This document shows, in pieces, positions 5,780-29,462 of a DNA stretch of 37,123 nucleotides. Numbering within the stretch: the stretch's first letter is position 1; every line of letters begins with the position of its first letter. Location of the stretch: positions 1 to 37,123 of IMG/VR virus record IMGVR_UViG_3300029319_000167; one strand, 5' to 3'. The DNA comes from a virus. The notes under the pieces were generated by a model, which was not told the DNA's origin, ran no database searches, and was given only the letters and a program-made list of their open reading frames with translations. The translations under genes were made by a program, and so were the position numbers.

Positions 5780-5835
5780 TAGGATTAATCTCCGATTAAA
5801 ACAGGTTTAGGCTTAGTTTACAGACGTAGCTCGGT

Positions 5836-7224: not shown

Positions 7225-7226
7225 AG

Positions 7227-7541
7227 TTAACTCTTAGGATATTTGTCCTTAATTGTTTTTATATCTGCCTTCCAAGCGTCTATACCAGAATGATAAATTT
7301 TATCTAATTGGTCTGCTATTGAAGGATACTCTGCTCTTCTTTTAGACTTATAACTATTATTTTCTAAATCCCAAGCATCTTGTAATGCTTTTAATCCATT
7401 AGTGCAATCAGCTTCAGTAGGCTTAGAACCACCATCATGCACTATAAGATTTGCATAAATTTTATTTTTTGAGTCAGACCATCCAAACCATTGTCCTGTT
7501 CTCACTGTGACTAGATAGTCTTCGATATGTGTAGGTCTCAT
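7227..7541 (-). CDS. Tail-fibre-associated small protein, 104 residues
   Basis: The C-terminal half contains R-R-A-E-Y-P-S-I-A-D-Q-L-D-K-I-Y-H and A-W-K-A-D-I-K-T-I-K-D-K-Y-P, a signature common in small proteins encoded among fibre genes of marine and other phages; these are sometimes thought to be fibre tips or assembly chaperones. The N-terminus (R-T-G-Q-W-F-G-W-S-D-S-K-N-K) is beta-like. It lies 1-2 nt from both neighbouring fibre genes, so it is in the same transcript. Chaperone versus structural part cannot be decided from the sequence. Confidence 0.72.
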   Translation of the reverse strand: MRPTHIEDYLVTVRTGQWFGWSDSKNKIYANLIVHDGGSKPTEADCTNGLKALQDAWDLENNSYKSKRRAEYPSIADQLDKIYHSGIDAWKADIKTIKDKYPKS

Positions 7542-7542
7542 T

Positions 7543-8292: not shown

Positions 8293-8293
8293 G

Positions 8294-10678
8294 TTAGATA
8301 GTTGCGATTAGCTTACCATTTGCATTTAAGCTAAAGGTAAAACCTGTAGCTGCAAAAATAACATCTTCAAAGTTATCATAATCTGTTCCAGATATATTGT
8401 CCACACCGCCATTAGTGCTTGTCACGATAAGATTGCCATTACTATCTGTATTAAATCCATACACTTCTGGGGAAGATGCCTTTGCAAAACTTAAGTTACC
8501 AGCTCCATCTGTTTTTAAAAATTCCCCTGCACTCCCATCTTCGGGAAGAATATAATTACTATCTTTAGTAAGTGTTGTTGGTGCGTCAAATGAAATACCA
8601 TAAGTATTGCTAGGGTCATTATCCCAATTAACTTTTCCATTTATTTCTACAACATCATTAGTAGAAGTAAGAACCCCACTATTACCATTAGGATATACTA
8701 AGCTATCATTACTTATTGTCTCAAACGTAGGATCTGCACCATTATTAGCTCTTAAAAATTTGCCATTATTACTAGATGTACCATGCTCTAATTTTGCAAG
8801 TGTTATAGCTTCGTCTTGTATTTTTTGTGTTGATATAGAATTGTTTTGTAGGATTGCGTTTGTTACTGTGTTGTCGCTTGGAGTTCCAATGTTTACAGTA
8901 GAACCCATTACGACAGCGTGATAGCTTGCACCAGTAGGAGGTGCAGCAGCCAGCTTAACTGTTGTACCATCTAAAGCAAAGCCTTCTCCAGGAGTAGATG
9001 TACCAGCGTTAGGTTTCTGTAGTACACCTTCTATTATTAGTAATATTTGCTGGGCTGAAGTAGGTGCATTACTAAGGGTAAAGTTTGTAGTACTGCCATC
9101 AAATGCAGGGCTAAGTGTAGATATAAAGAAGTTACCTATACTTTGTGTCTCTTCAAACGCACTTGTAGTTCCGTTATAAACATACAATTTACCTAAAGTT
9201 GTATGCCAAAATAAATCTCCAGAGTCATTATTAGTTGTAGGAAAACTAGAACCTACTCTATATCTTTCTCCAAAATCATTTATGTCTCCACTTAAACCTA
9301 CCAGGTCATCTTCTTTAAGAGTTGCTTTATGGTATGTATAGTTTTGACCTGATCCTGTAGAAACGACAAGAAATCTAACACCAGCAGCAACACTAGATCC
9401 ACGAAAGTTTGTGGCAATACCAGATATATTTACTGTTGTTCCGCCTACTGTTTGACCAGATGCAGTTCCAGTACTGCTGACAGCCATTCCGCCAGCGTCC
9501 GCAATACTTATTACGACACCTGATTGTGGTTGAGTATTAGGAAAAGAACTTTCATTTGCTATTGCTTCCAAACCACCAATAGGTGCTAACTGTGCAGCTA
9601 CATAATCTACGATTGCTCCACTTGTAGGAAACTTAGTGTCGTCATCAGTTACAGATGTTGCTTTTTGCATACCATCTAACTGGTTAAGATCTGCTATATC
9701 AGATGTAAGAGCAGTAGTATCCGCTAATTTTGAAGCTGTACCAGATTGCATAGTTGCTAAAGTTTGCAGCTCTGCATCTGCTAACTTGTTATTAGTAACT
9801 GAGCTATTTGCTATTTCACTTGTGCTAACTGAGTTTGGTGCAAGATGACTAGCATCCAAAGGACTACCAGCTATAAGTGATTTTATCTCTGCTATTGTTT
9901 GATCGGTAGTTGCATTTGCCTCGATAGCATTTAGCTTTGCAAGTAAGGCATCAGTAAAAGAGTTTGTATCAGAGTTTGCTTCGTAAGCTGTTTTTATCTC
10001 TGCATTTGTTTGATCTGCAGTTGCTCCACTTTCTATTCCATCTAGTTTTGTACCATCAGCAGATACATCCCTTCCGTCAACAGTTCCAGATGTAGCGATA
10101 TTCTGACTACCAAAATCAGGAGATATTTTAGTTCCATCTATAGCTGCGCTTGCGTTTACGTCAGCATTAACAATACTTCCATCTGCAATTTGTGTTGACG
10201 TAATACTACCGACTCTTTCTAAAAATGCTTTAGTTACTGCATCTTGAGCATTAGTAGGATCTGAAACATTGATTATCGGCTTATTCTGTGCGTCTTGTCC
10301 TTGCGGTGTATTTTGAATACCTAAAGCAGCTTCATCTTTAGCCTCTTGTATTCCGTATAGCAGTTGTAATACAGCAGTATCCAGGTCGGCAGCAGTTAAA
10401 GTAGAGCCATCTACAAAATCAACAAGGGCATTAGTTAATGGAGTGTCTCTGCTAATCTCAATAAGCACTCCAGTTTTAGGCGCACCAGTAGCTTCTTGAG
10501 TAGATGTTGCTGAACTAAGAGTATTAAACTCAATAGTCGTATCATTTACAAAGGTAAAGTCAGTATTAGCTACTAAGCCAAGTGCGACAACTATATGATC
10601 CTTTTTGACGTATGGAAAAGGAATTGTAAATTGTTTGGTAGATCCGTTTCCAGTACCAGTAAATGAAGCAAAAGGCAT
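8294..10678 (-). CDS. T7 gp17-like tail fibre protein, 794 residues
   Basis: The first ~130 residues (F-T-G-T-G-N-G-S-T-K-Q-F-T-I-P-F-P-Y-V then I-E-I-S-R-D-T-P and L-T-A-A-D-L-D-T-A-V-L-Q) are the T7 tail fibre N-terminal domain that attaches the fibre to the tail tube. The middle is a long shaft of short repeats such as I-K-T-A-Y-E-A-N-S-D-T and S-I-T-S-T-Q-I-A-D-G-S-I, and two linker modules, G-K-F-L-R-A-N-N-G-A-D-P and G-E-F-L-K-T-D-G, occur near the end. It is longer than T7 gp17 (553). TAATG overlap with the giant ejection protein gene couples it to the virion operon. Distal fibre genes follow it. Confidence 0.9.
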   Translation of the reverse strand: MPFASFTGTGNGSTKQFTIPFPYVKKDHIVVALGLVANTDFTFVNDTTIEFNTLSSATSTQEATGAPKTGVLIEISRDTPLTNALVDFVDGSTLTAADLDTAVLQLLYGIQEAKDEAALGIQNTPQGQDAQNKPIINVSDPTNAQDAVTKAFLERVGSITSTQIADGSIVNADVNASAAIDGTKISPDFGSQNIATSGTVDGRDVSADGTKLDGIESGATADQTNAEIKTAYEANSDTNSFTDALLAKLNAIEANATTDQTIAEIKSLIAGSPLDASHLAPNSVSTSEIANSSVTNNKLADAELQTLATMQSGTASKLADTTALTSDIADLNQLDGMQKATSVTDDDTKFPTSGAIVDYVAAQLAPIGGLEAIANESSFPNTQPQSGVVISIADAGGMAVSSTGTASGQTVGGTTVNISGIATNFRGSSVAAGVRFLVVSTGSGQNYTYHKATLKEDDLVGLSGDINDFGERYRVGSSFPTTNNDSGDLFWHTTLGKLYVYNGTTSAFEETQSIGNFFISTLSPAFDGSTTNFTLSNAPTSAQQILLIIEGVLQKPNAGTSTPGEGFALDGTTVKLAAAPPTGASYHAVVMGSTVNIGTPSDNTVTNAILQNNSISTQKIQDEAITLAKLEHGTSSNNGKFLRANNGADPTFETISNDSLVYPNGNSGVLTSTNDVVEINGKVNWDNDPSNTYGISFDAPTTLTKDSNYILPEDGSAGEFLKTDGAGNLSFAKASSPEVYGFNTDSNGNLIVTSTNGGVDNISGTDYDNFEDVIFAATGFTFSLNANGKLIATI

Positions 10679-13600
10679 TAACCTGTCCTAACGTCTGTGT
10701 TTACTATAGATCGCCAAGCCTCGACTTGGTTAGGGAAATCATTAGTAGTTTGTGCTACTTCTTTATTTAATATTCTATTTTCATTTTGTAAATGTTGCAA
10801 ATATGGTCTTGTATTAATGAAATATCTTCTTGCTGCATCCCTGTATTTTTTAGCTAGTTGGTCTATAGCATATAATTTTGTCAGCATTGCACGTTTTGAC
10901 ACTATATTTCTAGGCAAACCAGTTGCGTCAAATTCTGGATCATAGTCAGGTAATTCTTTATAGGCATCACTATTAATTAATCTTTCCAGGTCTTGCGCAA
11001 AAGTTAAGCCACTTCCGTTTGGATCTTTGAGAGTAGTCATAAGTTCTCTAAACTCCATAAATTCCTGGTTACTCATTACATAACCTTTAATACCTAAGCT
11101 AGTTCTTGTACTAAATCTTGGGTATGCACCAAAACCATGTAGCCTGGATAACTCTTTATAAACAGTTCCGTTTCTTTCTTTTGTTGGTCTAAACATTGCC
11201 AATGGATGTATGTTCATTACCAATGATCTTAAAAGAGGATTTTTGATATTTTCAGCTCCATAGGCATAGTCATATTCTACTGGCTGTCCATAAATAGGAT
11301 CTAGTTCTGGTGTTCCAAATAGATTTTGTAATCCAGGTATTTCACTTAATAACTCCATTGCAAGGTCGGATGCTGTTGCATACCAGGTTCTTTCTCCTGT
11401 TGTTGCATTTACCGATTCATTTATTAAATATCTTTTATTATCAAATCCAATTCTTGTTTGCCTTAACAAAGCTAATGGCATTTTCATGTAACGAGCAATA
11501 GTTGTTTCAAGCATATTGCGTTTACCAGTATGTATATATTGGTTGCCACTTTCTTCTGTTTGCATTAATTCTGTAATTAAATCATAAAAATTACCAATAT
11601 TAGCCATAACACTTTTTCTAAAATAACCAACAGTATTTTCTTTAACAGTATCCCCTATAGCTTTAGCTGCTGTGTAACCATCAAATCTTCTTAAGGTATG
11701 AGCATTAGCAATAATATATGCTTCCTGAGCCTTATCGCTGTAGCTAATTTCATCATTTTCTGTATATGGTATTTCAAATTGATCGTCTCTAGGCATACGT
11801 TTTATAGCATCTACATATCCTCCTATTGAACCAAAAATAAAACTAGCGGTATCAAACATATCTAATGAATACCAATCTGACCATTCATTACTTCCAGGAG
11901 TTCTAAATCTTATTGCGTTTGGAGGTCTGTGCATATATCTATTTAATCTATCTTTATTAGGGTTTGTACTTTGTGGACCACTAAATTCAACAAGTCCTGT
12001 AGCTACAGCTCCAATACCTAGCGCAAACAAATGCTGACTTGTAGCTATTTCCCCTATAGCTCTTTCTCTTTGGAATAAATCTTCTGATGTTATATCTCTC
12101 CAATAACTATCTACCAATCTGTTAGTTGGTAAAGGCAAATGCCTTAATGCGCTTTTTACCAGGTTTAAAGGAGTTCTGTTTGTTGGGAATACGACACCTA
12201 AAAGGGGTACTGCTCTTGTAGCTTTATGTATTCTTTTTGAAGGATAATTTAAAATTCTTTGACCAAGTTCATCAAAGCCTGTTTCAGTAGAAGATAAACC
12301 TTTTCCAAAGCCTCTAAATTGATCGTTAGTAGGTTCAGATGCCTTAGTAAAATATTCTAAATTGTTTAAATCTTCGTCATTTCTATATTGTTCCGCAAAT
12401 TCTAAAATGTCCTCTGGTTGTGTTAATCCTTTTTCTTGCGCCCTTCTTATTCCGTATTCAACTGTTCTTTCATTTCTATCGACCTCTATGCTATCGGTAA
12501 AGTTTACATAATCAACAGCCTGTCTTGCGTGAACACTATCCATAAATCCACCTTTTATTACGCTTCCATCTGGCATTTCTACATCTGCTAATGATCTATT
12601 TAATGCTGCTTCTGCTTTTTTATGTGCCTCGTTAAATATTCTAGGGTCGTGCATATCAAATCCTTGCGCCATCTTTTGAAATAATTCTTGCTCCATTAGC
12701 CTGGCATATTCATAGGAAGGTGCAACTGTCATACCAACTAACGTATCTAACCCACTCATAACTCTCGAAGCTCCTGATCCAAAAGTAGTTTTAACTCCTT
12801 TAGTTAAATAATGTGTTGCCAATATTACTGGATTTGTTTCTGGATTTGTTAAGTGTTTAGCTACACCCTTACCTCCACTTAACATTCTCCTTGCTTCGTC
12901 ATCTATTTCTTCTTGAACATAATCATCAAATCTTCTTATTTTTGGTTGTTTATTTGGATTTTTACTTTTTCTATAGCCATCTGCCTCGAAATAACCTCTA
13001 TTGATATTTCCAAAAACTTCATCATGTTTTACAGCAGATAAAGCCAGCCTAAAAGCGTGTGCAGCATGAACAAAATATCTAAGATACATAGTCATATTTA
13101 GTTGTTGTCTCATTTTTGCCATTCTTGCTCCATCCATATCTCCAGCAGCTAAAGCCTTGCGTTTTGTCTTTCCAGCTCCCATAAATTGAGAATAAGGTAA
13201 AGTAACAGCTCTAAATAAACTGCCACCTAAAACTTTTCCAAGTGTTGCAGAGTTCAAGAAAATACCATTTCTTGCTATTTGAGCAATTTTTTCTTGCGTT
13301 AACTGACCTTTACCTACATTGTCTAAGCCTTTAGCAAAATTAGTCATAAAATTATTCATTGACTTAGTTCTGTCTTTATACAAATAAAGTGATTCAGCAA
13401 TAATTTCCATAATTTCTCTAGCTCTTTTTGTAGGTTTGTTATTCATAACGCTTTCATAATCTTTTTTACTCATTAAGTTTTCAAAAATGTTTTCTTGTTC
13501 TAATACAGCTTTTTTAAATACACCAGGAATAGATTGTTGTTCTGGCATATCTGCTGGATCTGAACCTTCTTGTATTTGCGCTTTTGAGTTAATTATTTTA

Positions 13601-16600
13601 TTAGCTTGATTATTGTCAGGAACATAAATAATGTCGCCTGGCTGACCAAACTCTGTACCATCTACTCTAATTCCTTGATATTTCTTAGAAGCTAAATATT
13701 CAGCTAATGCTCCTTTTTGTTCAGCAGTTAATTTGCCATCTAAAACAGCACCAACATTTTCTATATTTAATTCTTGCAATAATTTAGAAAGTGATTTATT
13801 TTGAGAAGTTAAATCAAGAATCATAATATCTGCATTTACGACTCCATCTACATAAGTACTTTTCTCTCGGACTTCTCCTCCGTCCATAGATTTAAAATAT
13901 GTACCTTTTCCTAGTCCTTTATCCTGGACTAATCCAGCTTCCTCTACTCCTTTTTCAAGAGCTGTCGTACCTGTTTTTGTTGTAGCTACATCTACTTCTA
14001 TATGCTGGTATGGAGGTATAAACATTTCTTGACCGCCCAAGAAATCCATTTGTTGCATCCTTAAGTTTTGCGCAGAAGGTCTATTAACCTCAGCTATTGC
14101 AACGCTTACCTTCATTGCATCTTCCCATAAAGATATTAATAATGATTTTGATGTACTATCGTTAGGATTTAGTTTTATATCTAACGCTACTTCTTTCATC
14201 TGCTGTATCTGTACGTCTCTTTGTAAGATTATTGCTGCCTGGGCGACTTGTTTTTGCAATGCGTTTTTATCTCCTCTCATTGCTTTTTTGTGCAAAGCTA
14301 ATATTTCGTCTGTTCTAAAATTACTTTCTGTTATTAATTGCAAGCCTAATCTTTTCATGTTTTCCATAGTAAAAGAAGGTACTTTTGTAGCATCTTCTCT
14401 TGTTCCTAATAGTTCAAACAAGCTAGTTTCAAACGCTTTATTAGTAGCAATTAAATCGGCTTCGCTAGTCGGTATATATTTCTTGCCATCTGGATTTAGT
14501 TTTCTGTTTATTAATCTTCTATATAATCCGTCCATAGCTTCTTCAATAGTCATATCTCCGTCTCTTATTGCAACCTTTATAGTCTCTAAGTTTTCTGTAA
14601 ACTCGTCTGGATTTAATGCAAAACTAGCTGGCTCTGGAGCTGTGTTGCCTGGTATCTTTTGAGCAAAGCGTTCAGATCTAGGAGTTCTTTCTGCCAACCT
14701 TCCAGCTTGTGCGTCTCTAAATATATCTTTGTAAGTTTTAAAGCCATAACCCGAAAGTTTGTTATTTATTTTTTCTGCAATTTCTTGTAATTTTTTGAAT
14801 GGTTGTAGCCAAGTAGGTTCTTTAGCAAAGTCAAGCTCGTCAAATACTGAAAAAGCAAATGCCTGGACTTCTCTTTCACTCATTCTTTTAGCACCATATA
14901 AATATTTTTGATGCTTAGGATAAAAAGATGCAACTATTTCTCTTAACTGTCTATCAACTGCTGGACTATCTAATAGTTTTTGCTCTTTAAGAGTTAAATA
15001 TCTATCTTGTATTCTATGGAATGATTCATGTCTCAATGTCTGCATCATTGATCCAAAATTTATAAAATGACTTTTGTAAGTCATTGCAAGAACTATTAAA
15101 TCTTTTTGAGGAGTTGAACCGAACCTAAATAAACCTTTAGCTCTACCAGTTTTACCTATTGCACTAGGAGGTAAACCATAAGCTGATGCTGCCTTTGCAC
15201 TTATCTTGGGTTCGATAGCATCAACAAGACGTAAGTTTTGGACATTCGCACCAGCAATTCTTCTAGCTATATCAACTAATTCTTGCGCCTGTTGCTCAGT
15301 AAGATTTACGTCAGAATAAACATGATCGTTACCCATGTTTGTATATATATCATCTTCAAGCGCAAACTCTAATTGCTCATTGTTTTTAGGATCTAATGGG
15401 TCAAAGTTTTTAGGATTTGTCGATTCTTTATATTCTTTGTTGTATTTAGCCTGGAGTTTTTCGTTTGCTTTTCTTACGTTTTCGTTTTCTATCTCTCTTA
15501 AATTATCTAATTCAAAATCTCCATCATCAGCTCTAGGATCTCTTTGAACATACCCATCCCCATCAACATAATTATTTCTTATATTTACTGTGCCATCTTT
15601 ATTAACACTACCTTTCTTAACTAATGGCTCTCTCATTATTTCTGTATAAGCCATGCTGTTTCTTAAGGTAAGTTCTCCGTCAGCAAATTCAGCAGCAGCG
15701 CTTAAACTCTTTAGTTCGTTTTTCATAGCCATATATGCCTTATGTCTTGCACCAGAACTAATCCCAATTTCGTCTAAGAAAGCATTAAATTCAGCATCCT
15801 TTTTAGATTTTTTACCCCACCTATTACCTGTAATATAAATAGCTCTATCAATATCGTTAGCAAATGCAATTGTATATTGACCATATCTAGGCTTTGCTGT
15901 TCCAGCCCATTTAGTAGAATTAAAATTTAACTTAGGATATTTACGCATTAAGATTGGATATAGTAATCCAAAATCTGCGTCATTTAATTCCGAAGCAGAA
16001 TTAAACTTATAGCCTCCTTCAGTTATATATGGAAAAGTTTTTCTTTTTGTAGATGTAACTTTAGCGTCTAATGTCTTACCAATTTTTGAATGGTTTTTGT
16101 TTAGCGAGCCATTATTAGCTACTAATTCATCTTCCAGGTCAAATATTTCTTGTTCTGTATATCCCTGCAATAATTCATCTTTTTCTTTATTTACGACTTT
16201 TTGTACTTCTTCTCTTTTAATTGGCTCAGGTTTTTCGTTTCTTAAAAGATCGTTAGCTTTTTCATTCAACTTAGTATCAATTTCTTTTTGTACTCTTGCT
16301 GGTTCTGATTCAATTTTAGTTAAGGGTGCGTCATCCCCTGCCATAGTTGTTTTTATTAATTCAAAATTATCTTTTACTATTTGTGTTGCTGATATTGGGC
16401 CAGTTTTCATTGAAAGAGCTAATTCATTAATTAATCTGTTTGTATCTGAAACTGAATACGCTAAACCCTCAAACCTTTCAACTTGTCTTTCTGCCTCAAG
16501 CCTTCTATCAACTGAATCGTCATAAGAAATTTTATTGCCTTCTACTTTTTCAATAGCCGCTTTTTTATTTTTTTGCGTTACAGCTCTTAAACCACTTATT

Positions 16601-19362
16601 TCTGTTCTAAGTGTTTTTAAAAATGTTTCAGCTATAGCGCTTATTTGTGGTAAATTATTTTCTTTTGACCATTGTTCTAGTCCAGGTAAAGTACCTTCGG
16701 TAACTGTTTCTACTGCTCTAGTAGATGCAAGCATTATTTGTCTGATTCGATCTGCGCTAAATTTTGGATTTTTAGCAAATTTGCTGTAAACAAAATTAAT
16801 TGATTCGACACTAGCTCCTTCTACAGAACCAAGTGCTAACGCTTTGTTGTATGGAATTTCTTTAGTTGCAACTTTATCTAAAAGATTTCTTGGTAATCTT
16901 GAAAGCTGAGTGCCTTCAATCATTAATGTATTTGTTAAAGTAATCCCTTTTTGCGCTAACGACTCTAATGTTTCTCCGCTATTTTGCATAAACAATGCAA
17001 CATCCATAGCGGTCATAGATCCTTTAATAGATGTACCCTGAGCAATGTTTTTTAAGGCTGATATTGTTTGTGCTTCTCTAACTGTTGCTACATCTACAAA
17101 CCTTACATCTACTTCTCCTATTCCTGATTTTTGAGCAAGGTCTAATCTATTGTGACCATCAACAATATAGACCTTACCCACATCCCCTATCTCTCCTGTC
17201 GTGTCTCTCCATACTGTTAACAAATCAGCTAAATTAGGATCAAAAGTACTAGCTTCTTTAAGAGATCCGCTTACTCCTTTTTTATTAAATTTACCTTCTG
17301 ATTTAACTTGAAATACATCTGGACGAACTGTTAAGTCACTTACTTTAACCTTTGCAATTTCTCCAGCAGTAGGAGCAGCTAATCCAACACTTGTACCTAG
17401 CTCATTAGAAAATCCTCTATCCGAGTCAGGTCTAATCTGTGATTGTATTTTCTGTTCTTTTTCAAGTTCTACAGTAGCTTCGCCAAGTTCTTTTGCAGCT
17501 TTTTTAACTATATTTTGTGATTTCTTAACTTCAGTTTCAAGGTCAACTTGTTTTTGTTCTGTATATCCTGTTTCCCATTGTGGATCTTTTATGTCTCCTT
17601 CTTTCTTGTAATAACCTAATAAATCTTTTCCTGGTGCATCTTCATCTACTTCTCCTATTCTTATAGGTTGCCTAATTTTTCCGTCTAAAGCTCTTTTTGG
17701 TTGAGGTGTTTGCTGTTCTTCTATTGTTTCAGCTTCTATTGTATTTTCTTGATTACCTTTAGTTTTCTCATCTGCGTCTAATTTTGCTCTTATCTTTTTG
17801 TAGTATTCAATTGCATCATATTCTTTCTTTAAATTATCAGCGTTATCTATTGCTGCTTCAAAAATTTTCCACTTGCTTAAATAATTAACCATTGGTTTAA
17901 TTATTCTTGCTTCCGCAGAGTCAACTATTGATCTTAAATAGTTTTCAGCAACTTGATACCCATAATCTTCCGCAGTTTTAGTTCCAATAGATTTATCTAA
18001 CAAATCAAGTTGTGTATTTTTTGTAGGAAATTGTCCTGGAAAAGCTCCCTTAAATCCACCTTGACCAAACTTTCTTGTTAAATTTAACGCTTTACCTCCA
18101 GCTCCAAACGCTACACCCATAGGTATTCCATTAATTATTTCATTTACAAATAATGATTTTATTTTTGCTTCGACAAATGAATCATTTAATCTAGCGTTGT
18201 TATTAATTCCTTCGGGTAATAAATTATCCATTAAAGAAGGCTGGTATGGATCTCCTAAAATGGTTTCTGCTATAAGTGAATTTCTTGCTCCTTCTACTGC
18301 ATTTTTAGCTACAAATTTACTTACCTTACTCACTCTTGGCATATTAACTTTCATCCAACTAATAGCTTTAGCAAACTGTGGAGAGGCAGTTTTAGCTTTT
18401 TTAAATACGTTTGCAGCATATACATACTCATCTGGTAGTCCAGGAGTTAATGCTTTAGCAGCAGCAAAGGTTAAAAAGAATGGAGCTGCTTCCCCGAAGA
18501 AAGTTGACCCCATATCAGCTAATGGTCTGCCAGTATCTATAACTGGATAACCTCCAACTAATGCGTCAAAAGATGCGCCTTTACCACCAAGTAATCCCCA
18601 ATTTTCTCCAGCCAACCTATCTTGACCACTCATAGGCTCAAAATTAGGATCGTCTTTTACCTGAAACGGATCTTTATTATCTGCAATATCTTGGAATATA
18701 TTTTTACTTATAAGTCCTGTACCCATAGCATCTGCCATGCTCATTCTGTTATTTATATCTCCTAGTTTTTTAAAAAATTCTGGCAAACTTTTTTTATCTA
18801 TACCAGCTTTTATTGCTTTTATTGCCAAAGCATTAGCACCAACTACATCCCCTGTTAGCATTTCTGCCATAAATCCTGGCATATCCATTCTTACCATGTC
18901 ATTCAAAGTATTATTAATACCAGAAACACCACTAATAGCGGTTCTATCTACAATTCTTGCTAAGTCTCCTAATGCGTTTCTTAATCTAAACTGACCTCTT
19001 AATTCTTCTGGAGCATACTTTCCTTTGTAATCTTTGCTAAAAATATTTAATTTGTCGTATAAACCTAAAATTGGTGTTGACATTTTTGTGTCTCTACCTA
19101 CTCCAAATCCTAAATCGTTTTTAAATTTTTCTGTGTAGTAATTATCAGAATGTATTTCTTCTCCACTTGTATCTACTGGTGTAAATCCTTCAGTTTGAAT
19201 ATCATCCTCTATATCTGTAACGTCATCTTCGCCACCCATAGTAGCGTTATACAGATCTAAATTAAAAGGTGCAGCCTCGGCAATTTTTGTATCTCTAGCT
19301 TCTAAAGCCTGGTCAGCTTTAACTTCTTTATCAGATATAATTAGGTCTTTTTCTGTTGCCAT
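10678..19362 (-). CDS. Giant internal virion (ejection) protein, T7 gp16-position, 2894 residues
   Basis: At the gp16 position, between the gp15-like and gp17-like genes, this protein is about twice T7 gp16 (1318). It probably rides in the capsid and is ejected with the DNA to form the channel across the envelope. A ParB/sulfiredoxin-like module lies at ~670-800, with Y-I-V-D-G-H-N-R (D735-R739). A zinc-metallopeptidase motif H-E-S-F-H is at 1445-1449. A segment at ~1780-1915 (G-K-G-T-Y-F and G-I-R-V-D-G-T-E-F-G-Q-P-G-D) resembles ADP-ribosyltransferase-like folds of phage polyproteins. I see no clear lytic transglycosylase. Long helical, charged linkers join the modules. Domain assignments are by motif, and the ART-like one is weakest. 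Confidence 0.88.
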   Translation of the reverse strand: MATEKDLIISDKEVKADQALEARDTKIAEAAPFNLDLYNATMGGEDDVTDIEDDIQTEGFTPVDTSGEEIHSDNYYTEKFKNDLGFGVGRDTKMSTPILGLYDKLNIFSKDYKGKYAPEELRGQFRLRNALGDLARIVDRTAISGVSGINNTLNDMVRMDMPGFMAEMLTGDVVGANALAIKAIKAGIDKKSLPEFFKKLGDINNRMSMADAMGTGLISKNIFQDIADNKDPFQVKDDPNFEPMSGQDRLAGENWGLLGGKGASFDALVGGYPVIDTGRPLADMGSTFFGEAAPFFLTFAAAKALTPGLPDEYVYAANVFKKAKTASPQFAKAISWMKVNMPRVSKVSKFVAKNAVEGARNSLIAETILGDPYQPSLMDNLLPEGINNNARLNDSFVEAKIKSLFVNEIINGIPMGVAFGAGGKALNLTRKFGQGGFKGAFPGQFPTKNTQLDLLDKSIGTKTAEDYGYQVAENYLRSIVDSAEARIIKPMVNYLSKWKIFEAAIDNADNLKKEYDAIEYYKKIRAKLDADEKTKGNQENTIEAETIEEQQTPQPKRALDGKIRQPIRIGEVDEDAPGKDLLGYYKKEGDIKDPQWETGYTEQKQVDLETEVKKSQNIVKKAAKELGEATVELEKEQKIQSQIRPDSDRGFSNELGTSVGLAAPTAGEIAKVKVSDLTVRPDVFQVKSEGKFNKKGVSGSLKEASTFDPNLADLLTVWRDTTGEIGDVGKVYIVDGHNRLDLAQKSGIGEVDVRFVDVATVREAQTISALKNIAQGTSIKGSMTAMDVALFMQNSGETLESLAQKGITLTNTLMIEGTQLSRLPRNLLDKVATKEIPYNKALALGSVEGASVESINFVYSKFAKNPKFSADRIRQIMLASTRAVETVTEGTLPGLEQWSKENNLPQISAIAETFLKTLRTEISGLRAVTQKNKKAAIEKVEGNKISYDDSVDRRLEAERQVERFEGLAYSVSDTNRLINELALSMKTGPISATQIVKDNFELIKTTMAGDDAPLTKIESEPARVQKEIDTKLNEKANDLLRNEKPEPIKREEVQKVVNKEKDELLQGYTEQEIFDLEDELVANNGSLNKNHSKIGKTLDAKVTSTKRKTFPYITEGGYKFNSASELNDADFGLLYPILMRKYPKLNFNSTKWAGTAKPRYGQYTIAFANDIDRAIYITGNRWGKKSKKDAEFNAFLDEIGISSGARHKAYMAMKNELKSLSAAAEFADGELTLRNSMAYTEIMREPLVKKGSVNKDGTVNIRNNYVDGDGYVQRDPRADDGDFELDNLREIENENVRKANEKLQAKYNKEYKESTNPKNFDPLDPKNNEQLEFALEDDIYTNMGNDHVYSDVNLTEQQAQELVDIARRIAGANVQNLRLVDAIEPKISAKAASAYGLPPSAIGKTGRAKGLFRFGSTPQKDLIVLAMTYKSHFINFGSMMQTLRHESFHRIQDRYLTLKEQKLLDSPAVDRQLREIVASFYPKHQKYLYGAKRMSEREVQAFAFSVFDELDFAKEPTWLQPFKKLQEIAEKINNKLSGYGFKTYKDIFRDAQAGRLAERTPRSERFAQKIPGNTAPEPASFALNPDEFTENLETIKVAIRDGDMTIEEAMDGLYRRLINRKLNPDGKKYIPTSEADLIATNKAFETSLFELLGTREDATKVPSFTMENMKRLGLQLITESNFRTDEILALHKKAMRGDKNALQKQVAQAAIILQRDVQIQQMKEVALDIKLNPNDSTSKSLLISLWEDAMKVSVAIAEVNRPSAQNLRMQQMDFLGGQEMFIPPYQHIEVDVATTKTGTTALEKGVEEAGLVQDKGLGKGTYFKSMDGGEVREKSTYVDGVVNADIMILDLTSQNKSLSKLLQELNIENVGAVLDGKLTAEQKGALAEYLASKKYQGIRVDGTEFGQPGDIIYVPDNNQANKIINSKAQIQEGSDPADMPEQQSIPGVFKKAVLEQENIFENLMSKKDYESVMNNKPTKRAREIMEIIAESLYLYKDRTKSMNNFMTNFAKGLDNVGKGQLTQEKIAQIARNGIFLNSATLGKVLGGSLFRAVTLPYSQFMGAGKTKRKALAAGDMDGARMAKMRQQLNMTMYLRYFVHAAHAFRLALSAVKHDEVFGNINRGYFEADGYRKSKNPNKQPKIRRFDDYVQEEIDDEARRMLSGGKGVAKHLTNPETNPVILATHYLTKGVKTTFGSGASRVMSGLDTLVGMTVAPSYEYARLMEQELFQKMAQGFDMHDPRIFNEAHKKAEAALNRSLADVEMPDGSVIKGGFMDSVHARQAVDYVNFTDSIEVDRNERTVEYGIRRAQEKGLTQPEDILEFAEQYRNDEDLNNLEYFTKASEPTNDQFRGFGKGLSSTETGFDELGQRILNYPSKRIHKATRAVPLLGVVFPTNRTPLNLVKSALRHLPLPTNRLVDSYWRDITSEDLFQRERAIGEIATSQHLFALGIGAVATGLVEFSGPQSTNPNKDRLNRYMHRPPNAIRFRTPGSNEWSDWYSLDMFDTASFIFGSIGGYVDAIKRMPRDDQFEIPYTENDEISYSDKAQEAYIIANAHTLRRFDGYTAAKAIGDTVKENTVGYFRKSVMANIGNFYDLITELMQTEESGNQYIHTGKRNMLETTIARYMKMPLALLRQTRIGFDNKRYLINESVNATTGERTWYATASDLAMELLSEIPGLQNLFGTPELDPIYGQPVEYDYAYGAENIKNPLLRSLVMNIHPLAMFRPTKERNGTVYKELSRLHGFGAYPRFSTRTSLGIKGYVMSNQEFMEFRELMTTLKDPNGSGLTFAQDLERLINSDAYKELPDYDPEFDATGLPRNIVSKRAMLTKLYAIDQLAKKYRDAARRYFINTRPYLQHLQNENRILNKEVAQTTNDFPNQVEAWRSIVNTDVRTG

Positions 19363-19364
19363 AC

Positions 19365-22202
19365 TTATAAACCTAAGTTTTGGTTATATTTTAATATCAT
19401 ACCTCTAGCATCTTGAAATGTCTCTACCCCATTTAATTTTAAGAGAAATTCTTTATGCTGCGGAAAATCTTTAAGGTTTGCTGGAATACTAGGATGATTG
19501 TAGTCAATAACTCCATCTGTAACCGCTTCTGGATATAAATTTTTTATACTGTTTTCTGTTTCAAAAATAATAAAATTACCTAAATTAACACCATCCCCTG
19601 ATCCATATTTATCTGTAGCCTCTAATAAAGTAAAAAGATTTTCTAAATTTTTATATGCTTTTTGGCTTTTCATTGTCATCTTCTTACCATGTCTAACTTC
19701 ATCTGGTTTAGAAGTAAATTGATTAGCATTTAACTGATTACTATAAATTTGATGTGGGGAATAAAATACTCCGCCTACAGTTTGACCTTCACGACCAGAA
19801 AATAATATGTTCAAATAAAATTGTGTTCCAGCCTCGCCATTAAAAACAACTCCATTAGGAGAATCTATATGCAAAACAAAACTGTATTCTTCAGTTCCAG
19901 CTCTGTATAAATCATTTGCGTCAAAGTTTACATCAGATAATCTATTATTAACAATATTTCCATAACCTCCATCAGAGTTTCCAACAAAACTTGCACCAGG
20001 TTCTTCTTCTCCGTACCAACTTGACGTATATTTATTCCCTGTAACTTCTGGATCAACTCCTTCAGTATCAAAAAATTGTTTAAATAATCCGTTTTCTTTA
20101 TCGTCCCTAACTCTGTTATTTAAATCTTTTTGTGATACTTTTTGCCCATCTGAAGTCATTTCAAAATAAGTATCTATTAAATACTTTTCTACGCTTCCTC
20201 TGATTTGTTCCCAGGCTGCATTTATTTCAGAGTCACTAGCTTGAGGTCTGCTATTTTTATAAGTCTTTTTAAATTCATCTTCTTGGTTTTTTAATGATTC
20301 GCCTACTGCGGTTGATACAATACTGCCTTCCATTTCTAAAATATTTTTATGAGTATCCGCCACTCCTGATTGCAAATCAACTACATCTTGACCATATATA
20401 CCAGTTAATGCTTTATAGCTTGATAGATACTTAGTACAAGCATTACTGTTTTCGCCAGCCAATAAACAAGCCTGAGCATCTTTTTTTAGTAATTTTACAT
20501 CTGCTCTAAACTCTGTTGGAGTTAAATCATAAACAATATTTTTTAAAAGAGTTTCTCTGCTTTTTTCTAACTCTTCTACTCTTACATTAAATTCTGCTGT
20601 TGTTATTAATCCATTATCTTTTTGTGTATTTAACTGTTTTAAAGCGTTATCATAATTTTCATCTACTTTTGAAAGTATAGCTTTTTTTGCCTGGATAACT
20701 TTGGTATCCGCTTTGATCTCGTTTTCCGTTCCATTTGCATTATAGTTAGCCAAAATATCTTTAGCGCTTTCTTCATCAATTTTTATTTCATCTACTCCAC
20801 TCATTAAATTGTCTTGATTTTGTACGTCTCGCAAAAACTTATCAGCAGTTTCAAAATCGTTTCTTTCTCTAATTACGCTAGTAACAATATCTCTTAAAAA
20901 CCTTTCTCCTCCAAACGTATCTATGTAAAAAGAAGTTAAAACATATCCTCCATCAACTTCCTTATATCTACTATTACTTGTACCTGTTCCTATTCCGTTA
21001 ACTCCATCATCCTCTGGATTTCCATAAAATATATCTTTTAAATATTCAAGAGTATCTAATCCGCTTAGATTTTTTGATTCCGCAATAGCAGCGATTAAAT
21101 CTTTTACTAATTGCTTTTTTGATTCATCAGGTAAATGATTTGCTTTATTTATCCTTTCAACAATAGTTCCAACATTTTCACTTAATTTTGCATCTGTAAA
21201 AGTTTTATCATTTTTAATACTGTTTCTTAATGTATTTATATCTCCTGTTATTTCAGTTGATTCTTGCCTGTTTAAAATATTTTGATAAGTAGTGTCTTGA
21301 CTTGTTCTGTCATTCATTCTGTGTTGAGTAACATAACCATTCGTATTGTTATGTTCAAAAACACCTAGTTTTGCATTTCCATAAATATGTTTGTTATATG
21401 CGTCTTTATATCTATCATCATCTGGACTTAACTCTCCAACTGTTACTTGTTCGTAAATTGGAGTTACTCCATCTTGTTCAAACTGCGGTTCTCCGTTCTT
21501 AATAAGTTGTACTTTGTTTCCATCCTTATCTAAATAATCAACTTTAATAGTATTTTTTACATTATTCCAAGTTGCTATATTGTCATAAACTTTTCTTTCT
21601 TCAATTTGCGACAATATGGTATTTTGTAATCTTTTATTTTTTCTTATTTCTTTTAAAGTTTGTTCTGCAAATCTTATTTCTTCTAAATCTGTTTCGCTTA
21701 AAGTTCCTGTTGTGTCATTTCTTTTATCAATAATTTTCATTAATTGCTTTTCTACGGAATTTAATTTATTAGCAGGGTTTACTTCTGTACCATCATTTCC
21801 TAGCGTGTATGTATCTAATATTTGACTAGCTTGTTTTGTTAAATATTTTTGTTCGTCAACTCTGAATTTAGTGTAGTTATCGTCAAGCTGGTCTACCTCT
21901 CCCTTGAGAGTTTTCATTCCATCAATAAAAGCACTAAATTCGTTTTGTTTTGCAATTCTTGTATCATCATAAAAACCTTGTACTGAAGGCAAATCTAAAG
22001 TAGGAACTAAATTAGCCTCTGTAGGTCTGGAATAAGTATCCCCATACCACTTAAACTGTTGTATTTTAGGTTGTTCAAACTGTAAATTTATCTGGCTTAC
22101 GTCTCCAGTACTTGCACCTTTAGCAAGCTGTTGTCTTTTTTGATTTGCTCGTTTCTTTGGGTTTGCATCCCCTGGAGTTAAGCCTGTTGTTTTTGTTGCC
22201 AT
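19365..22202 (-). CDS. Internal virion protein, T7 gp15-like, 945 residues
   Basis: Position (directly after the gp14-like gene and before the giant protein), length (T7 gp15 is 747) and composition (mostly helical, acidic/lysine-rich, few cysteines, long coiled-coil-like stretches around residues 95-215) fit the gp15 ejection protein that forms a tube with gp16. The N-terminus is basic and low-complexity (N-P-K-K-R-A-N-Q-K-R-Q-Q-L), as often in DNA-contacting virion proteins. The gene begins one base after the upstream stop and ends two bases before the giant gene starts. No enzymatic motif is visible. The identification is by synteny rather than sequence recognition. Confidence 0.8.
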   Translation of the reverse strand: MATKTTGLTPGDANPKKRANQKRQQLAKGASTGDVSQINLQFEQPKIQQFKWYGDTYSRPTEANLVPTLDLPSVQGFYDDTRIAKQNEFSAFIDGMKTLKGEVDQLDDNYTKFRVDEQKYLTKQASQILDTYTLGNDGTEVNPANKLNSVEKQLMKIIDKRNDTTGTLSETDLEEIRFAEQTLKEIRKNKRLQNTILSQIEERKVYDNIATWNNVKNTIKVDYLDKDGNKVQLIKNGEPQFEQDGVTPIYEQVTVGELSPDDDRYKDAYNKHIYGNAKLGVFEHNNTNGYVTQHRMNDRTSQDTTYQNILNRQESTEITGDINTLRNSIKNDKTFTDAKLSENVGTIVERINKANHLPDESKKQLVKDLIAAIAESKNLSGLDTLEYLKDIFYGNPEDDGVNGIGTGTSNSRYKEVDGGYVLTSFYIDTFGGERFLRDIVTSVIRERNDFETADKFLRDVQNQDNLMSGVDEIKIDEESAKDILANYNANGTENEIKADTKVIQAKKAILSKVDENYDNALKQLNTQKDNGLITTAEFNVRVEELEKSRETLLKNIVYDLTPTEFRADVKLLKKDAQACLLAGENSNACTKYLSSYKALTGIYGQDVVDLQSGVADTHKNILEMEGSIVSTAVGESLKNQEDEFKKTYKNSRPQASDSEINAAWEQIRGSVEKYLIDTYFEMTSDGQKVSQKDLNNRVRDDKENGLFKQFFDTEGVDPEVTGNKYTSSWYGEEEPGASFVGNSDGGYGNIVNNRLSDVNFDANDLYRAGTEEYSFVLHIDSPNGVVFNGEAGTQFYLNILFSGREGQTVGGVFYSPHQIYSNQLNANQFTSKPDEVRHGKKMTMKSQKAYKNLENLFTLLEATDKYGSGDGVNLGNFIIFETENSIKNLYPEAVTDGVIDYNHPSIPANLKDFPQHKEFLLKLNGVETFQDARGMILKYNQNLGL

Positions 22203-22901
22203 TTATCCTCCTAGTGAATTGTAATAATTTGCTTGCGCAGTTTGAGCCTTAATAGTTGCTTGATTAGCTTTATATTGCATATTGCTATTAAATCCACCAA
22301 CGATAGAACCAGCCATACCAAGTGCGTATGGACCAAAACTTGGCTTGGGTATTTTAAGTGGCTTAACAGGATCAAGATATGTTTTCTTAAGATAATTTCT
22401 AGCAGATCCCCTTCGAGAAGCTCGATCTCCTTGCGCATCAAGCCTTTGCGTTTGCGAGCCTTTAAGTGCAAATGCAGCATTTCTGTTAGTCACAAAATCG
22501 GCTGCTGCTCTCGATCTTTCTATCTCAGCTAAAAGAGTCCAGGCATTTTGTCCAATACGTTGCGAGGCTACTTCTCCTTTCTTTTGTAATGCTACTTTTC
22601 CTCTTTCTGTTTGCTCTTGCGCCCTAGCTTCTTGTATCTGTTGTTGCTCCATAGTAATCCTGGTCGAAGCTCTCTCGTAAGCCAGGTCAGCCATAAATTC
22701 TGTATGTGCTATAAAGTCTTGATTCATCTGCTCCCTAACATCTTCGGTCATTCGGTTAGATTCTGTTTGAAGTAACTGACTTTGATAATTAAGATTATTC
22801 TGTGCGTTTTGGAAGGCAACATTAGACTTGGCTTGTTGATAAGCCATAAATTGTGAGCCTACTCCTAAAACTGTACCTACTATGGAAATTGGATCACACA
22901 T
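22203..22901 (-). CDS. Internal virion protein B, T7 gp14-like, 232 residues
   Basis: The start M-C-D-P-I-S-I-V-G-T-V-L-G and the long Gln/Ala/Glu-rich helices (N-A-Q-N-N-L-N-Y-Q-S-Q-L-L, M-E-Q-Q-Q-I-Q-E-A-R-A-Q-E) match T7 gp14, which begins M-C and is similarly helical and about 196 residues. It is thought to insert in the outer membrane as part of the ejection channel. A glycine-rich hydrophobic stretch near 192-205 (L-G-M-A-G-S-I-V-G-G-F) could contact membrane. It lies between gp13-like and gp15-like genes with 1-3 nt gaps. Confidence 0.85.
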   Translation of the reverse strand: MCDPISIVGTVLGVGSQFMAYQQAKSNVAFQNAQNNLNYQSQLLQTESNRMTEDVREQMNQDFIAHTEFMADLAYERASTRITMEQQQIQEARAQEQTERGKVALQKKGEVASQRIGQNAWTLLAEIERSRAAADFVTNRNAAFALKGSQTQRLDAQGDRASRRGSARNYLKKTYLDPVKPLKIPKPSFGPYALGMAGSIVGGFNSNMQYKANQATIKAQTAQANYYNSLGG

Positions 22902-22904
22902 TAG

Positions 22905-23399
22905 TTAGACCTTAGCAAATTCATAAAAAAGACGACCCTCATAACCAAATGTAGCGTGTTCTTTGATAATTGAAAAACCCATGTACTTAATCCATTTTAC
23001 ATGAGTTGTATTTCTTGCATCTACAAAATTGTATAATATTGGATAATTCATTTTAAATTTATCTAATTCTATTGGAGAATTGCGAAGAAAAGCTCTTACA
23101 TCTTTATAATCGCTAGTCATAGTTCTATGCCCTAACATCCATATTTTTCCTATGTTTTTTCTAATAGGAATTACCCCATACATACCCATGATATTTCCTT
23201 TACGACCTACCATAGTCATGCAAGGTTGACTTGCAAAATAACAATATATAAGACTACTTTTTGGATTTGATCCAGAATATGCGTATATTTCTTCTATATC
23301 TTCTTGCCTCATATTTGCAGCAACTTCCACTATGTCATTGGGAGTTGACTTTCTCCAATGAAATCTACTTAAATTCGTCTTGCTCTGCTGTGCAACCAT
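22905..23399 (-). CDS. Internal virion protein A, T7 gp13-like with GNAT-type fold
   Basis: The region F-H-W-R-K-S-T-P-N-D-I-V-E-V, then I-Y-C-Y-F-A-S-Q-P-C, a W-M-L-G-H-R-T-M segment and the closing L-Y-N-F-V-D-A-R-N-T-T-H-V-K-W-I-K-Y-M-G-F match T7 gp13-type proteins, which adopt a GNAT acetyltransferase-like fold and are needed for virion assembly. The frame is open to 23429, with ATGs at 23429, 23408 and 23399. I took 23399 because T7 gp13 starts only a few residues before the conserved R-x-K-S-T; the longer start would overlap the tail tube gene by 61 nt. No acetyl-CoA loop is evident. Confidence 0.82.
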   Translation of the reverse strand: MVAQQSKTNLSRFHWRKSTPNDIVEVAANMRQEDIEEIYAYSGSNPKSSLIYCYFASQPCMTMVGRKGNIMGMYGVIPIRKNIGKIWMLGHRTMTSDYKDVRAFLRNSPIELDKFKMNYPILYNFVDARNTTHVKWIKYMGFSIIKEHATFGYEGRLFYEFAKV

Positions 23400-26754: not shown

Positions 26755-27741
26755 TTATGAGTTAGACGCATATACTTCGATAGCGCAATCTGGGCGCAGT
26801 ACACCTGTACCATGAGCCATAGATCCGACCATAAATACACCCTGGTATAACGCATGAACATCATTTCCAGTTTGTTCCATTTTAAGATCCATTAACTTAA
26901 CTGTACCAACTGCATCTGGTGTAAATGCAAGTCCGATATTATCGGTGTAGTCAGCATGATAAGTATTGTTCTCTCCAGTAACAGCAGATCTGTTTGACTT
27001 AGGTAGGTTATTGGATTTAATAATTGAAATACCAGCAACCTTAAGAACTGTACCTTCTGCGTATGCTCCAGAACCACCCCAATCTCTGTTAAGAACATCT
27101 GTAGTTCTTGCAAGTTTGTAGTAATTTGCTGGATCAAGTGCAAAGTATCTAGCATTTTCTGGGATGTTATTCTCATCAAATGTCTGTGCAACTGTCCATA
27201 GAGCAGTAACAAGGTCAGCACCAGTAACAGCAGCAACCGCAGCAGCAGTATTAGCAGTACCAGACTTAAGAATCTTAACTCTTGTACCTCCAGGTAAGTC
27301 TGTATTAAAGTTCGTACCTGTTCTAGCAGCTTGAGCTATTGTTGCAGCTACGTTTTCATCAAAACGATAGGCTAGGGCATTACCCATTTCCTCTGTATAT
27401 TTTGACCTCACATCATAGTGATTCTTAGCCTCGTCAATGTCAGCCAAAAATACTTGAGATACAAGTTTGTCGTCAATATTTATAGTAGCCTCAGCGTGTT
27501 TGATGCTATCCCCTGTCAATTGTGTGCCAGGTGTATGATAGGAAGTTGAGCTGAGTCCAATAATTGGGAATTGTGCGGATTTTCCTGATTGAATCGTCCG
27601 AACTGTATGCAATGACTCGAATATTGTAGCTTTACGGAACGCTGATAGCACCTCTCCACTCCACACTTTTAAGAAAAGTGCGTCATAAGACGTACCAGTA
27701 GCATTGACCAAGCCGAGTCTTGAAGGACTAAAGTTAGCCAT
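26755..27741 (-). CDS. Major capsid protein, T7 gp10-like, 328 residues
   Basis: The N-terminal region (F-L-K-V-W-S-G-E-V-L-S-A-F, then S-G-K-S-A-Q-F-P-I-I-G), H-T-P-G-T-Q-L and the I-D-D-K-L-V-S-Q-V-F-L-A-D-I-D-E-A-K segment are typical of T7 gp10 HK97-fold capsid proteins; the length (328) is close to T7 gp10A (345). It builds the icosahedral shell. It is followed by a hairpin terminator. Upstream on the minus strand I see no Shine-Dalgarno sequence, unusual for the most abundant phage protein. No scaffold gene precedes it; cassette B does instead. Confidence 0.94.
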   Translation of the reverse strand: MANFSPSRLGLVNATGTSYDALFLKVWSGEVLSAFRKATIFESLHTVRTIQSGKSAQFPIIGLSSTSYHTPGTQLTGDSIKHAEATINIDDKLVSQVFLADIDEAKNHYDVRSKYTEEMGNALAYRFDENVAATIAQAARTGTNFNTDLPGGTRVKILKSGTANTAAAVAAVTGADLVTALWTVAQTFDENNIPENARYFALDPANYYKLARTTDVLNRDWGGSGAYAEGTVLKVAGISIIKSNNLPKSNRSAVTGENNTYHADYTDNIGLAFTPDAVGTVKLMDLKMEQTGNDVHALYQGVFMVGSMAHGTGVLRPDCAIEVYASNS

Positions 27742-29417: not shown

Positions 29418-29462
29418 AAAGATCGAACTATACTACCTATATAATAACCATAGATTCTCAAA
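29418..29462. promoter_or_regulatory. Divergent intergenic region of cassette B
   Basis: This is a 45-nt AT-rich gap between divergent starts. On the minus strand it reads ATAGGTAGTATAGT (29427-29440), matching the ATAGGTA and TATAGT elements of the cassette A gap. A second shared element, A-T-T-A-G-A-C-T-A-A on the minus strand, lies just inside the divergent gene (29467-29476). Candidate promoter region for both arms. Confidence 0.4.

What the first reader, a model, noticed from the sequence alone, without database searches (positions are those of the whole stretch)
10678..19362. A 2894-residue ejection protein joins ParB-like, HExxH protease-like and ADP-ribosyltransferase-like modules
Seen: Y-I-V-D-G-H-N-R at ~733-739, H-E-S-F-H at 1445-1449, and G-K-G-T-Y-F with G-T-E-F-G-Q-P-G-D at ~1817-1909. 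Known: gp16-type proteins enter the host first with the DNA, and ParB-like plus ART-like modules occur in phage polyproteins that protect incoming DNA or modify host proteins. Inference: besides making the ejection channel, this protein may deliver several enzyme activities into the cell at entry. Nearly a quarter of the window is devoted to it.
Basis: partly seen in the sequence, partly recalled or inferred. Interest (0 to 1): 0.62.

Follow-up and report, generated by a model that had tools for sequence, protein, structure and literature searches.

The report
Phage entry protein carrying extra domains
A marine cyanobacterial virus has fused a DNA-binding-type domain, a probable protease and a damaged-looking ADP-ribosyltransferase-like domain onto the giant protein that should help its DNA enter the cell; the same chain occurs in cultured Prochlorococcus viruses, so the idea can be tested.

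Summary
It occupies the gp16 position of a T7-like core operon (gp14, gp15, this protein, fibre). Its C-terminal ~900 aa are related to the gp16-position proteins of P-SSP7 and P-SCSP2. Homologues in 17 cultured P-SCSP1 Prochlorococcus phages are annotated only 'hypothetical'.

ParB-like: supported. A confident model of 657-886 matches ParB/Noc/KorB including the helix-turn-helix; GHNR is invariant in 72 of 72 rows. Zincin: supported by sequence (HExxH 91 of 91 rows, third-ligand Glu 86 of 89, homologous to zincins in polyvalent phage proteins); the model did not confirm the fold. ART-like: fold family supported through a relative (Pfam PARP above cut-off). However, the strand-1 His is missing in this phage and most relatives, while Tyr and Asp stay; the domain is still under purifying selection. 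ART activity here is doubtful.

Best reading: a phage-type 'polyvalent protein' built on a T7-type ejection-protein chassis, with ParB and ART as removable cassettes and zincin as a constant part. Virion location, self-cleavage and delivery are inferred, not shown. New variant of a known kind.

The parts
10678..19362 (-). 2894-aa gp16-position protein (P0001)
   Evidence: relatives
17443..19362 (-). N-terminal region, residues 1-640; partly conserved, no known family
16705..17394 (-). ParB/Noc-like N-domain plus helix-turn-helix, residues 657-886
   Evidence: AlphaFold model of 640-1240; Foldseek 20 PDB matches with E<=0.001, all ParB/Spo0J, Noc or KorB; VIA Z 10.3, 201 residues, rmsd 4.1 to Noc 7nfu
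17146..17157 (-). GHNR motif, residues 736-739
   Evidence: 72 of 72 rows
15373..16437 (-). variable linker, residues 976-1330, includes 'DID' segment near 1157-1177
   Evidence: highest dN/dS of the seven segments in all 5 comparisons; dS 0.90 against L004 versus 0.17-0.27 in the other six segments
14683..15360 (-). zincin-like domain, residues 1335-1560
   Evidence: present in 63 of 63 complete relatives of at least 1000 aa; homologous zincins in large polyvalent-type proteins
15016..15030 (-). HESFH, residues 1445-1449
   Evidence: H, E, H each 91 of 91 rows
14869..14871 (-). E1498, probable third zinc ligand
   Evidence: E in 86 of 89 rows
14023..14682 (-). helical segment, residues 1561-1780, kept also in ART-less relatives
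13558..14022 (-). ART-like domain, residues 1781-1935
   Evidence: family link to Pfam PARP; model pLDDT about 76-89 over most of this part; absent as a clean cassette in 10 of 59 complete relatives that have the C-terminal core
13990..13992 (-). D1791, aligned with the strand-1 catalytic His of ARTs
   Evidence: His in 13 of 72 rows only
13897..13899 (-). Y1822, aligned with the catalytic Tyr
   Evidence: 77 of 77 rows
13633..13635 (-). D1910, aligned with strand-5 Asp
   Evidence: 76 of 77 rows
10723..13440 (-). C-terminal gp16-like core, residues 1975-2880
   Evidence: hhalign to P-SSP7 gp16 probability 97.9, E 6e-13; to P-SCSP2 gp16-position protein 96.3
19365..22202 (-). gp15-position internal core protein (945 aa)
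   Evidence: position only; no PHROG or above-cut-off Pfam match
22203..22901 (-). gp14-like internal virion protein
   Evidence: Pfam T7_gp14 33.4 bits, cut-off 27
8294..10678 (-). tail fibre (gp17 position)
   Evidence: PHROG tail fibre 3e-160
23369..26032 (-). tail tubular protein B (gp12 position)
   Evidence: PHROG tail protein 1e-209
26755..27741 (-). major capsid protein
   Evidence: PHROG major head protein 2e-79

Best explanation
It is the internal core (ejection) protein at the gp16 position of a T7-like marine cyanophage, enlarged into a phage-type polyvalent protein. The C-terminal ~900 residues are the gp16-like chassis that should sit in the capsid core and later help build the entry channel. 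A zincin is a constant part of this chassis. A ParB/Noc-like DNA-binding and nucleotide-binding module and an ART-like module are cassettes that some lineages lack. Most likely course: the chain is made late with the other core proteins, packed in the head, ejected ahead of or with the DNA, and cut by its own zincin so that the ParB-like part is freed to act on DNA or nucleotides at the start of infection. In this phage the ART-like part is probably not a classical ADP-ribosyltransferase; it is kept for binding or for architecture. Shown: domain content, motif conservation, operon position, cassette pattern, constraint on the ART-like part. Inferred: packaging, ejection, self-cleavage, targets.
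For: Operon order MCP-TTA-TTB-gp13/14-gp15-this-fibre and the same order in P-SCSP1g and P-SCSP2. C-terminal profile related to P-SSP7 gp16 and the P-SCSP2 protein but not to gp15 controls. ParB fold with HTH. Zincin motifs invariant. The zincin profile also finds zincins in other large phage proteins; of four checked, the two longest (3111 and 2498 aa) match PHROG DarB-like antirestriction, the two shorter (1530 and 1171 aa) only phrog_21; the 2498-aa one has an ART-PolyVal domain above Pfam cut-off just after the zincin. It also finds zincins in 2824-3761-aa ORFs of four alphaproteobacterial contigs. Of 59 complete relatives with the C-terminal core, 59 have the zincin, 49 the ART, 51 the ParB. 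On a 59-row tree each cassette needs one change. Published precedent and logic of polyvalent proteins: PMC5512222.
Against: No Pfam polyvalent-domain model matches the window protein at E<=10, and MPTase-PolyVal is over cut-off in 0 of 14 relative records. The zincin+ART model is mediocre (pLDDT 66, pTM 0.35), with no PDB match at E<=0.001. T7 gp16 itself is not matched (hhalign probability 0.4). P-SSP7 gp16 is itself named only by synteny and size. No proteomic evidence was found that the protein is in virions: 'mass spectrometry' and 'ejectosome' do not occur in the P-SCSP1u cryo-EM paper text. The ParB second motif (ENxxR in ParB) keeps only its Asn.
Confidence: 0.55

Rival explanations
1. 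The zincin cuts the chain before or during head assembly, as proposed for phage P1 DdrB, and only some fragments are packed. The extra modules then work in the producing cell or in the head and are not delivered.
For: PMC5512222 reports DdrB processing before packaging and suggests autoproteolysis. The most variable linker lies between ParB and zincin, a plausible cut region.
Against: N4 vRNAP, also with an MPTase domain, is packaged unprocessed according to the same paper. The C-terminal core lies beyond the zincin, so a cut would separate ParB from the channel part.
Confidence: 0.25
2. The modules are structural fillers: the protein is only a channel and core protein, and the ParB, zincin and ART folds are relics without activity.
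For: Strand-1 His of the ART lost in most rows. ParB ENxxR motif incomplete. ParB missing in 8 and ART in 10 of 59 complete relatives. P-SCSP2 has a 1596-aa protein in the same place in which none of the three profiles matches.
Against: GHNR 72 of 72, HExxH 91 of 91 and E1498 86 of 89 rows kept across proteins of about 25-30% identity. dN/dS of 0.07-0.24 (ParB) and 0.11-0.20 (zincin).
Confidence: 0.2
3. The zincin replaces T7 gp16's transglycosylase and helps open the cell wall or outer layers during entry.
For: No SLT domain anywhere in the record, with positive controls. The zincin is the constant module of the chassis.
Against: Its relatives sit in polyvalent-type proteins with antirestriction and ART domains. 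HExxH zincins are not usual peptidoglycan hydrolases (recalled).
Confidence: 0.07
4. The ART-like module is an active transferase using a non-classical strand-1 residue (D/N/Q/K/M instead of His).
For: Tyr 77 of 77 and Asp 76 of 77 rows kept; dN/dS 0.015-0.18.
Against: The replacing residue varies without pattern (K22, M16, H13, Q7, D6, N3 and others of 72 rows), unlike a catalytic position; the residue after the Asp varies too (E35, I24, M8, Q8, V2 of 77).
Confidence: 0.12

Closest known systems
P-SCSP1 (MPP-C) cyanophage gp16-position protein (gene 25 of P-SCSP1g, 2563 aa)
   Same: Same place, same four modules in the same order; isolates exist on Prochlorococcus MED4.
   Different: About 28% identity over 658-2868; Lys instead of Asp at the strand-1 position and Glu after the strand-5 Asp. 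PMC9860041 speculates that g20/g21 of P-SCSP1a are internal virion proteins and gives no domains (passages).
Phage-type polyvalent proteins (Iyer et al. 2017, PMC5512222; N4 vRNAP, P1 DdrB and others)
   Same: One giant chain joining zincin, ParB-superfamily and ART domains near virion genes; homologous zincin.
   Different: Built on a T7-type gp16-position core protein with a C-terminal core not matched by Pfam; ART strand-1 His missing in the window.
T7 gp16 / T7-type tetrameric ejection protein
   Same: Gene position and size class; C-terminal relation to P-SSP7 gp16.
   Different: No SLT domain; T7 gp16 sequence not recognised.
ParB / Noc / KorB CTPase-type DNA-binding proteins
   Same: N-domain and helix-turn-helix fold; GxxR motif; conserved QxK that I align with ParB's QPR (recalled).
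   Different: ENxxR reduced to Asn; embedded in a virion-type protein; no ParA seen among the ORFs searched.

Membership tests
Phage-type polyvalent protein (PMC5512222) | Several unrelated enzyme-type domains in one long chain | tested here: met
   ParB fold, zincin motifs, ART-like domain (by family link)
Phage-type polyvalent protein (PMC5512222) | Zincin MPTase with HEXXH and a Glu in the second helix | tested here: met
   91 of 91 and 86 of 89 rows; both lie in predicted helices 104-121 and 162-175 of the model; sheet of the fold not confirmed
Phage-type polyvalent protein (PMC5512222) | Encoded with virion structural genes | tested here: met
Phage-type polyvalent protein (PMC5512222) | Packed in the head and delivered | not testable with these tools
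   inferred from gp16 position only
Pfam MPTase-PolyVal (PF18818) | Match to the curated model | tested here: not met
   no match for the window protein at E<=10; 0 of 14 relative records over cut-off
Active ART of the H-Y-D (Tox-ART-HYD2) clade | His in strand 1 | tested here: not met
   D1791 in the window; His in 13 of 72 rows
Active ART of the H-Y-D (Tox-ART-HYD2) clade | Tyr in strand 2 and Asp in strand 5 | tested here: met
   77 of 77 and 76 of 77 rows; strand-5 placement by comparison with the L152 ART-PolyVal segment, whose profile score was not significant
ART superfamily (fold) | Sequence or fold match to an ART | tested here: met
   relative L097 in the same profile family: Pfam PARP 30.9 bits, cut-off 26.7; the window model's best PDB match is an ART but only E 0.54, probability 0.72
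ParB/Noc family | N-domain fold with GxxR and adjoining HTH | tested here: met
ParB/Noc family | ENxxR nucleotide motif (recalled) | tested here: not met
   only the Asn is kept, 72 of 72 rows; the other motif positions vary
DdrB-like ParB | Asp/Asn at the end of strand 2; Tyr-bearing extra helix | tested here: inconclusive
   D735 is D or N in 72 of 72 rows and ends a model strand, but strand numbering was not matched to the paper and the Tyr helix was not tested
T7 gp16 ejection protein | Gene between gp15 and tail fibre | tested here: met
T7 gp16 ejection protein | Lytic transglycosylase domain | tested here: not met
   SLT PF01464: none in the record at E<=10, controls positive
T7 gp16 ejection protein | Core sequence related to T7 gp16 | tested here: inconclusive
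   probability 0.4 to T7 gp16, 97.9 to P-SSP7 gp16

The most novel reading that the evidence does not exclude
A T7-type entry channel carries a ParB/Noc-type nucleotide-switched DNA clamp on the same chain. As the phage DNA emerges, the clamp loads on it (pulling, protecting or marking it), and the zincin then cuts the clamp free from the channel. The ART-like module has become a non-transferring NAD+/ADP-ribose-binding or host-docking part.
Probability: 0.08. Interest if true: 0.85.

Novelty: new variant of a known kind. Interest (0 to 1): 0.5.

Why it matters
Polyvalent proteins are known mainly by prediction. Here the same chain stands in cultured, MED4-infecting phages with a published capsid and tail structure (P-SCSP1u, PMC10575957), so delivery and cleavage could be tested directly in a phage group reported to supply almost half of cyanopodovirus reads in the surface ocean (PMC9860041, passages). 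It also offers a clear case of an ART-like domain kept under purifying selection after loss of its strand-1 His.

Tried and rejected
Pfam on the whole protein: nothing at useful E-values. PHROG: one hit below E 0.01, phrog_21 'portal protein', to its C-terminal part only, which overlaps our ParB region; I do not read it as a portal. HMMER against PDB with the ParB profile gave ParB as best hit at only E 0.035; with the zincin profile FtsH at 0.12; with the ART profile CheY at 0.044, a chance match. PDB second look (VIA) of the zincin+ART model filled with helical-bundle rows of the segment 331-441 and did not test the zincin or ART parts; BFVD search gave nothing at E<=0.001. ART profile against the ART-PolyVal segment of L152 was not significant. 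Pfam on the ART-less gaps gave nothing. A recalled ddrB-ParB Pfam model was not searched by itself. My pattern for the 'DID' segment was too strict to count with (35 of 63; it even misses P-SCSP2, where blastp shows the segment). I first took Glu as the third ART residue; after reading PMC5512222 (H-Y-D) I use the Asp. No evidence was found in print that this family's domains were described: searches (open-licence PMC only, no preprints; listings seen, five papers opened).

Rows dropped before counts: of 106 non-redundant ORFs, 63 complete ones of at least 1000 aa were used for cassette counts and 59 with zincin and core for the tree. The 22 and 29 rows of the alignments for modelling came from 65 and 69 candidates after removing rows over 88% identity. 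The tree was a quick one with long branches; its one-change counts are indicative.

Full report
What is there. The window is the whole of a 37,123-base virus record. The ORF named in the finding is on the minus strand, 10678-19362, 2894 aa. Reading on that strand, the order is major capsid protein, tail tubular A, tail tubular B, a gp13-like and a gp14-like protein (Pfam T7_gp14 33.4 bits over a cut-off of 27; Phage_T7_Gp13 21.5 bits, under its cut-off of 25), a 945-aa protein in gp15 position, our protein, and a tail fibre. This is the T7 core-operon order, as in T7 itself, P-SSP7, P-SCSP1g and P-SCSP2. Parts of the left tail-fibre region match P-SCSP2 at 86% DNA identity, and the terminase region matches P-SCSP1 phages at about 76%. 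The host is therefore probably Prochlorococcus (inference).

Relatives. Six IMG/VR contigs encode the chain at 82-96% identity. Seventeen P-SCSP1 phages on Prochlorococcus MED4 carry a relative at about 28% identity over residues 658-2868, annotated 'hypothetical' (2563 aa in P-SCSP1g). Further scans with the P-SCSP1g protein and with module alignments gave 40, 31, 63 and 80 loci (many overlap), from which 106 non-redundant ORFs were used.

ParB-like module. The 13-row profile of 655-975 finds Caulobacter ParB as best PDB hit, but weakly (E 0.035). The model of 640-1240 is confident over the ParB part (blocks of 81-97 pLDDT for model residues 31-240). Foldseek gives 20 PDB matches at E<=0.001, all of them ParB/Spo0J, Noc or KorB. 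VIA aligns 201 residues to Noc 7nfu (Z 10.3, rmsd 4.1) over model residues 18-247, that is about protein residues 657-886. The match covers both the nucleotide-binding N-domain and the helix-turn-helix. GHNR is kept in 72 of 72 rows, Asn772 in 72 of 72 and Asp787 in 72 of 72. The second ParB motif is changed: where Caulobacter ParB has ENVQR, the profile has xNIAE/Q. A simple CTP-hydrolysing ParB is thus not assured.

Zincin-like module. H1445, E1446 and H1449 are kept in 91 of 91 rows with letters and E1498 in 86 of 89. HExxH alone would occur in 101 of 5000 shuffles. The same profile detects zincins in other large phage proteins. Four of these were checked against PHROGs: the two longest (3111 and 2498 aa) match DarB-like antirestriction and minor head families, the two shorter (1530 and 1171 aa) only phrog_21. 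The 2498-aa one carries an ART-PolyVal domain over the Pfam cut-off (67.4 bits) at about residues 1401-1553 (my coordinate conversion), directly after its zincin (1170-1367). The profile also detects zincins in 2824-3761-aa ORFs of four alphaproteobacterial contigs. This places the domain among the zincins of polyvalent proteins described in PMC5512222, although the Pfam model MPTase-PolyVal does not reach its cut-off in any of 14 records. The model of 1335-1940 was only moderate (pLDDT 66.3, pTM 0.35) and did not settle the zincin fold.

ART-like module. In one relative (L097, a 1626-aa fragment) the aligned domain reads YHGTS...GVYF and passes the Pfam PARP cut-off (30.9 against 26.7 bits); it matches ART-PolyVal below cut-off. 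L097 belongs to the same profile family as the window domain. The window model's best PDB match is an ART (Albireti toxin, a diphtheria toxin homologue), but at E 0.54, probability 0.72. PMC5512222 gives the active site of this clade as His, Tyr, Asp (passages). Over 77 rows, Tyr is kept in 77 and the Asp in 76. Of the 72 rows with a letter at the strand-1 position only 13 have His; the others have K22, M16, Q7, D6, N3 and others. The first strand is the least certain part of the alignment in the most distant rows. In the window the residue is D1791; the nearest His (1787) is R or K in closer relatives, so it is no substitute. On the 59-row tree the His is confined to one clade of four. Yet the domain evolves under constraint: dN/dS 0.015-0.178 in five comparisons, like the other modules. 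So the fold is kept but classical transferase activity is doubtful here.

Chassis and cassettes. Of 63 complete relatives of at least 1000 aa (the window protein included), 41 have all four modules, 10 lack the ART, 8 lack the ParB, 2 have only the zincin and 2 ParB plus zincin. All 59 with the C-terminal core have the zincin. In the ART-less proteins that I read (4 of 10) the helical segment before the ART runs straight on to the core, which is what a removable cassette looks like. On the tree, ART and ParB presence each need one change (quick tree, long branches). The core profile is related to P-SSP7 gp16 (probability 97.9, E 6e-13) and the P-SCSP2 1596-aa protein (96.3), not to gp15 proteins (0.1-0.3) and not recognisably to T7 gp16 (0.4). 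The ParB, zincin and ART profiles match none of these five proteins. The SLT domain typical of T7 gp16 is absent from the record.

How it most likely works. From PMC11440229 (passages): T7-like core proteins are expelled ahead of the DNA and form a channel, with a transglycosylase in gp16. From PMC5512222 (sections on peptidases and ParB read in full): MPTase domains may cut polyvalent chains before packaging, in the head or after injection; ParB-type domains may be NTP-regulated DNases or sensors. I join these: the core carries the modules, the zincin frees them, the ParB-like part acts on DNA or nucleotides at entry. Only domain content, position, conservation and cassette pattern are shown here; the rest is inference. 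PMC9860041 (passages) names the P-SCSP1a relatives as possible internal virion proteins from size and position only; the P-SCSP1u cryo-EM paper (passages) treats capsid and portal-tail, and a text search found no mass spectrometry or ejectosome. [quoted passage not shown]

Verdict. Observation confirmed; interpretation partly supported. It is a new variant of a known kind: polyvalent modules on a T7-type ejection-protein chassis, with one module apparently past classical catalysis.

Noticed in passing
window 5836-27741 versus 28311-31995: The structural block is inverted relative to the terminase module when compared with P-SCSP1g and contigs L005 and L007. No ORF of portal size lies next to the capsid gene. 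The record may be incomplete or chimeric near 27.75-28.3 kb.
   Followed up: partly
window 15373-16437 (residues 976-1330): Recombination-like mosaic: dS to L004 is 0.90 here and 0.17-0.27 in the other six segments.
   Followed up: partly
L081, residues about 727-793 of ORF 4340-11695: In the ParB-less clade a DUF3990 match (24.9 bits, under cut-off 32.2; an ART-clan family as I recall) stands roughly where others have ParB.
   Followed up: no
L156 and L164: Shorter proteins (1171 and 1530 aa) with ParB plus zincin but no gp16-like core: the pair travels together outside this chassis.
   Followed up: partly
window residues 1157-1177 and P-SCSP2 protein 462-481: A short segment (PRYG...F..DID.A.YI) is shared with the otherwise dissimilar P-SCSP2 protein and with a ParB-less relative.
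   Followed up: no
window 3839-4552 (+) and 28311-28835 (-): Two ORFs match the same PHROGs 848 and 1755, a possible duplication within the record.
   Followed up: no
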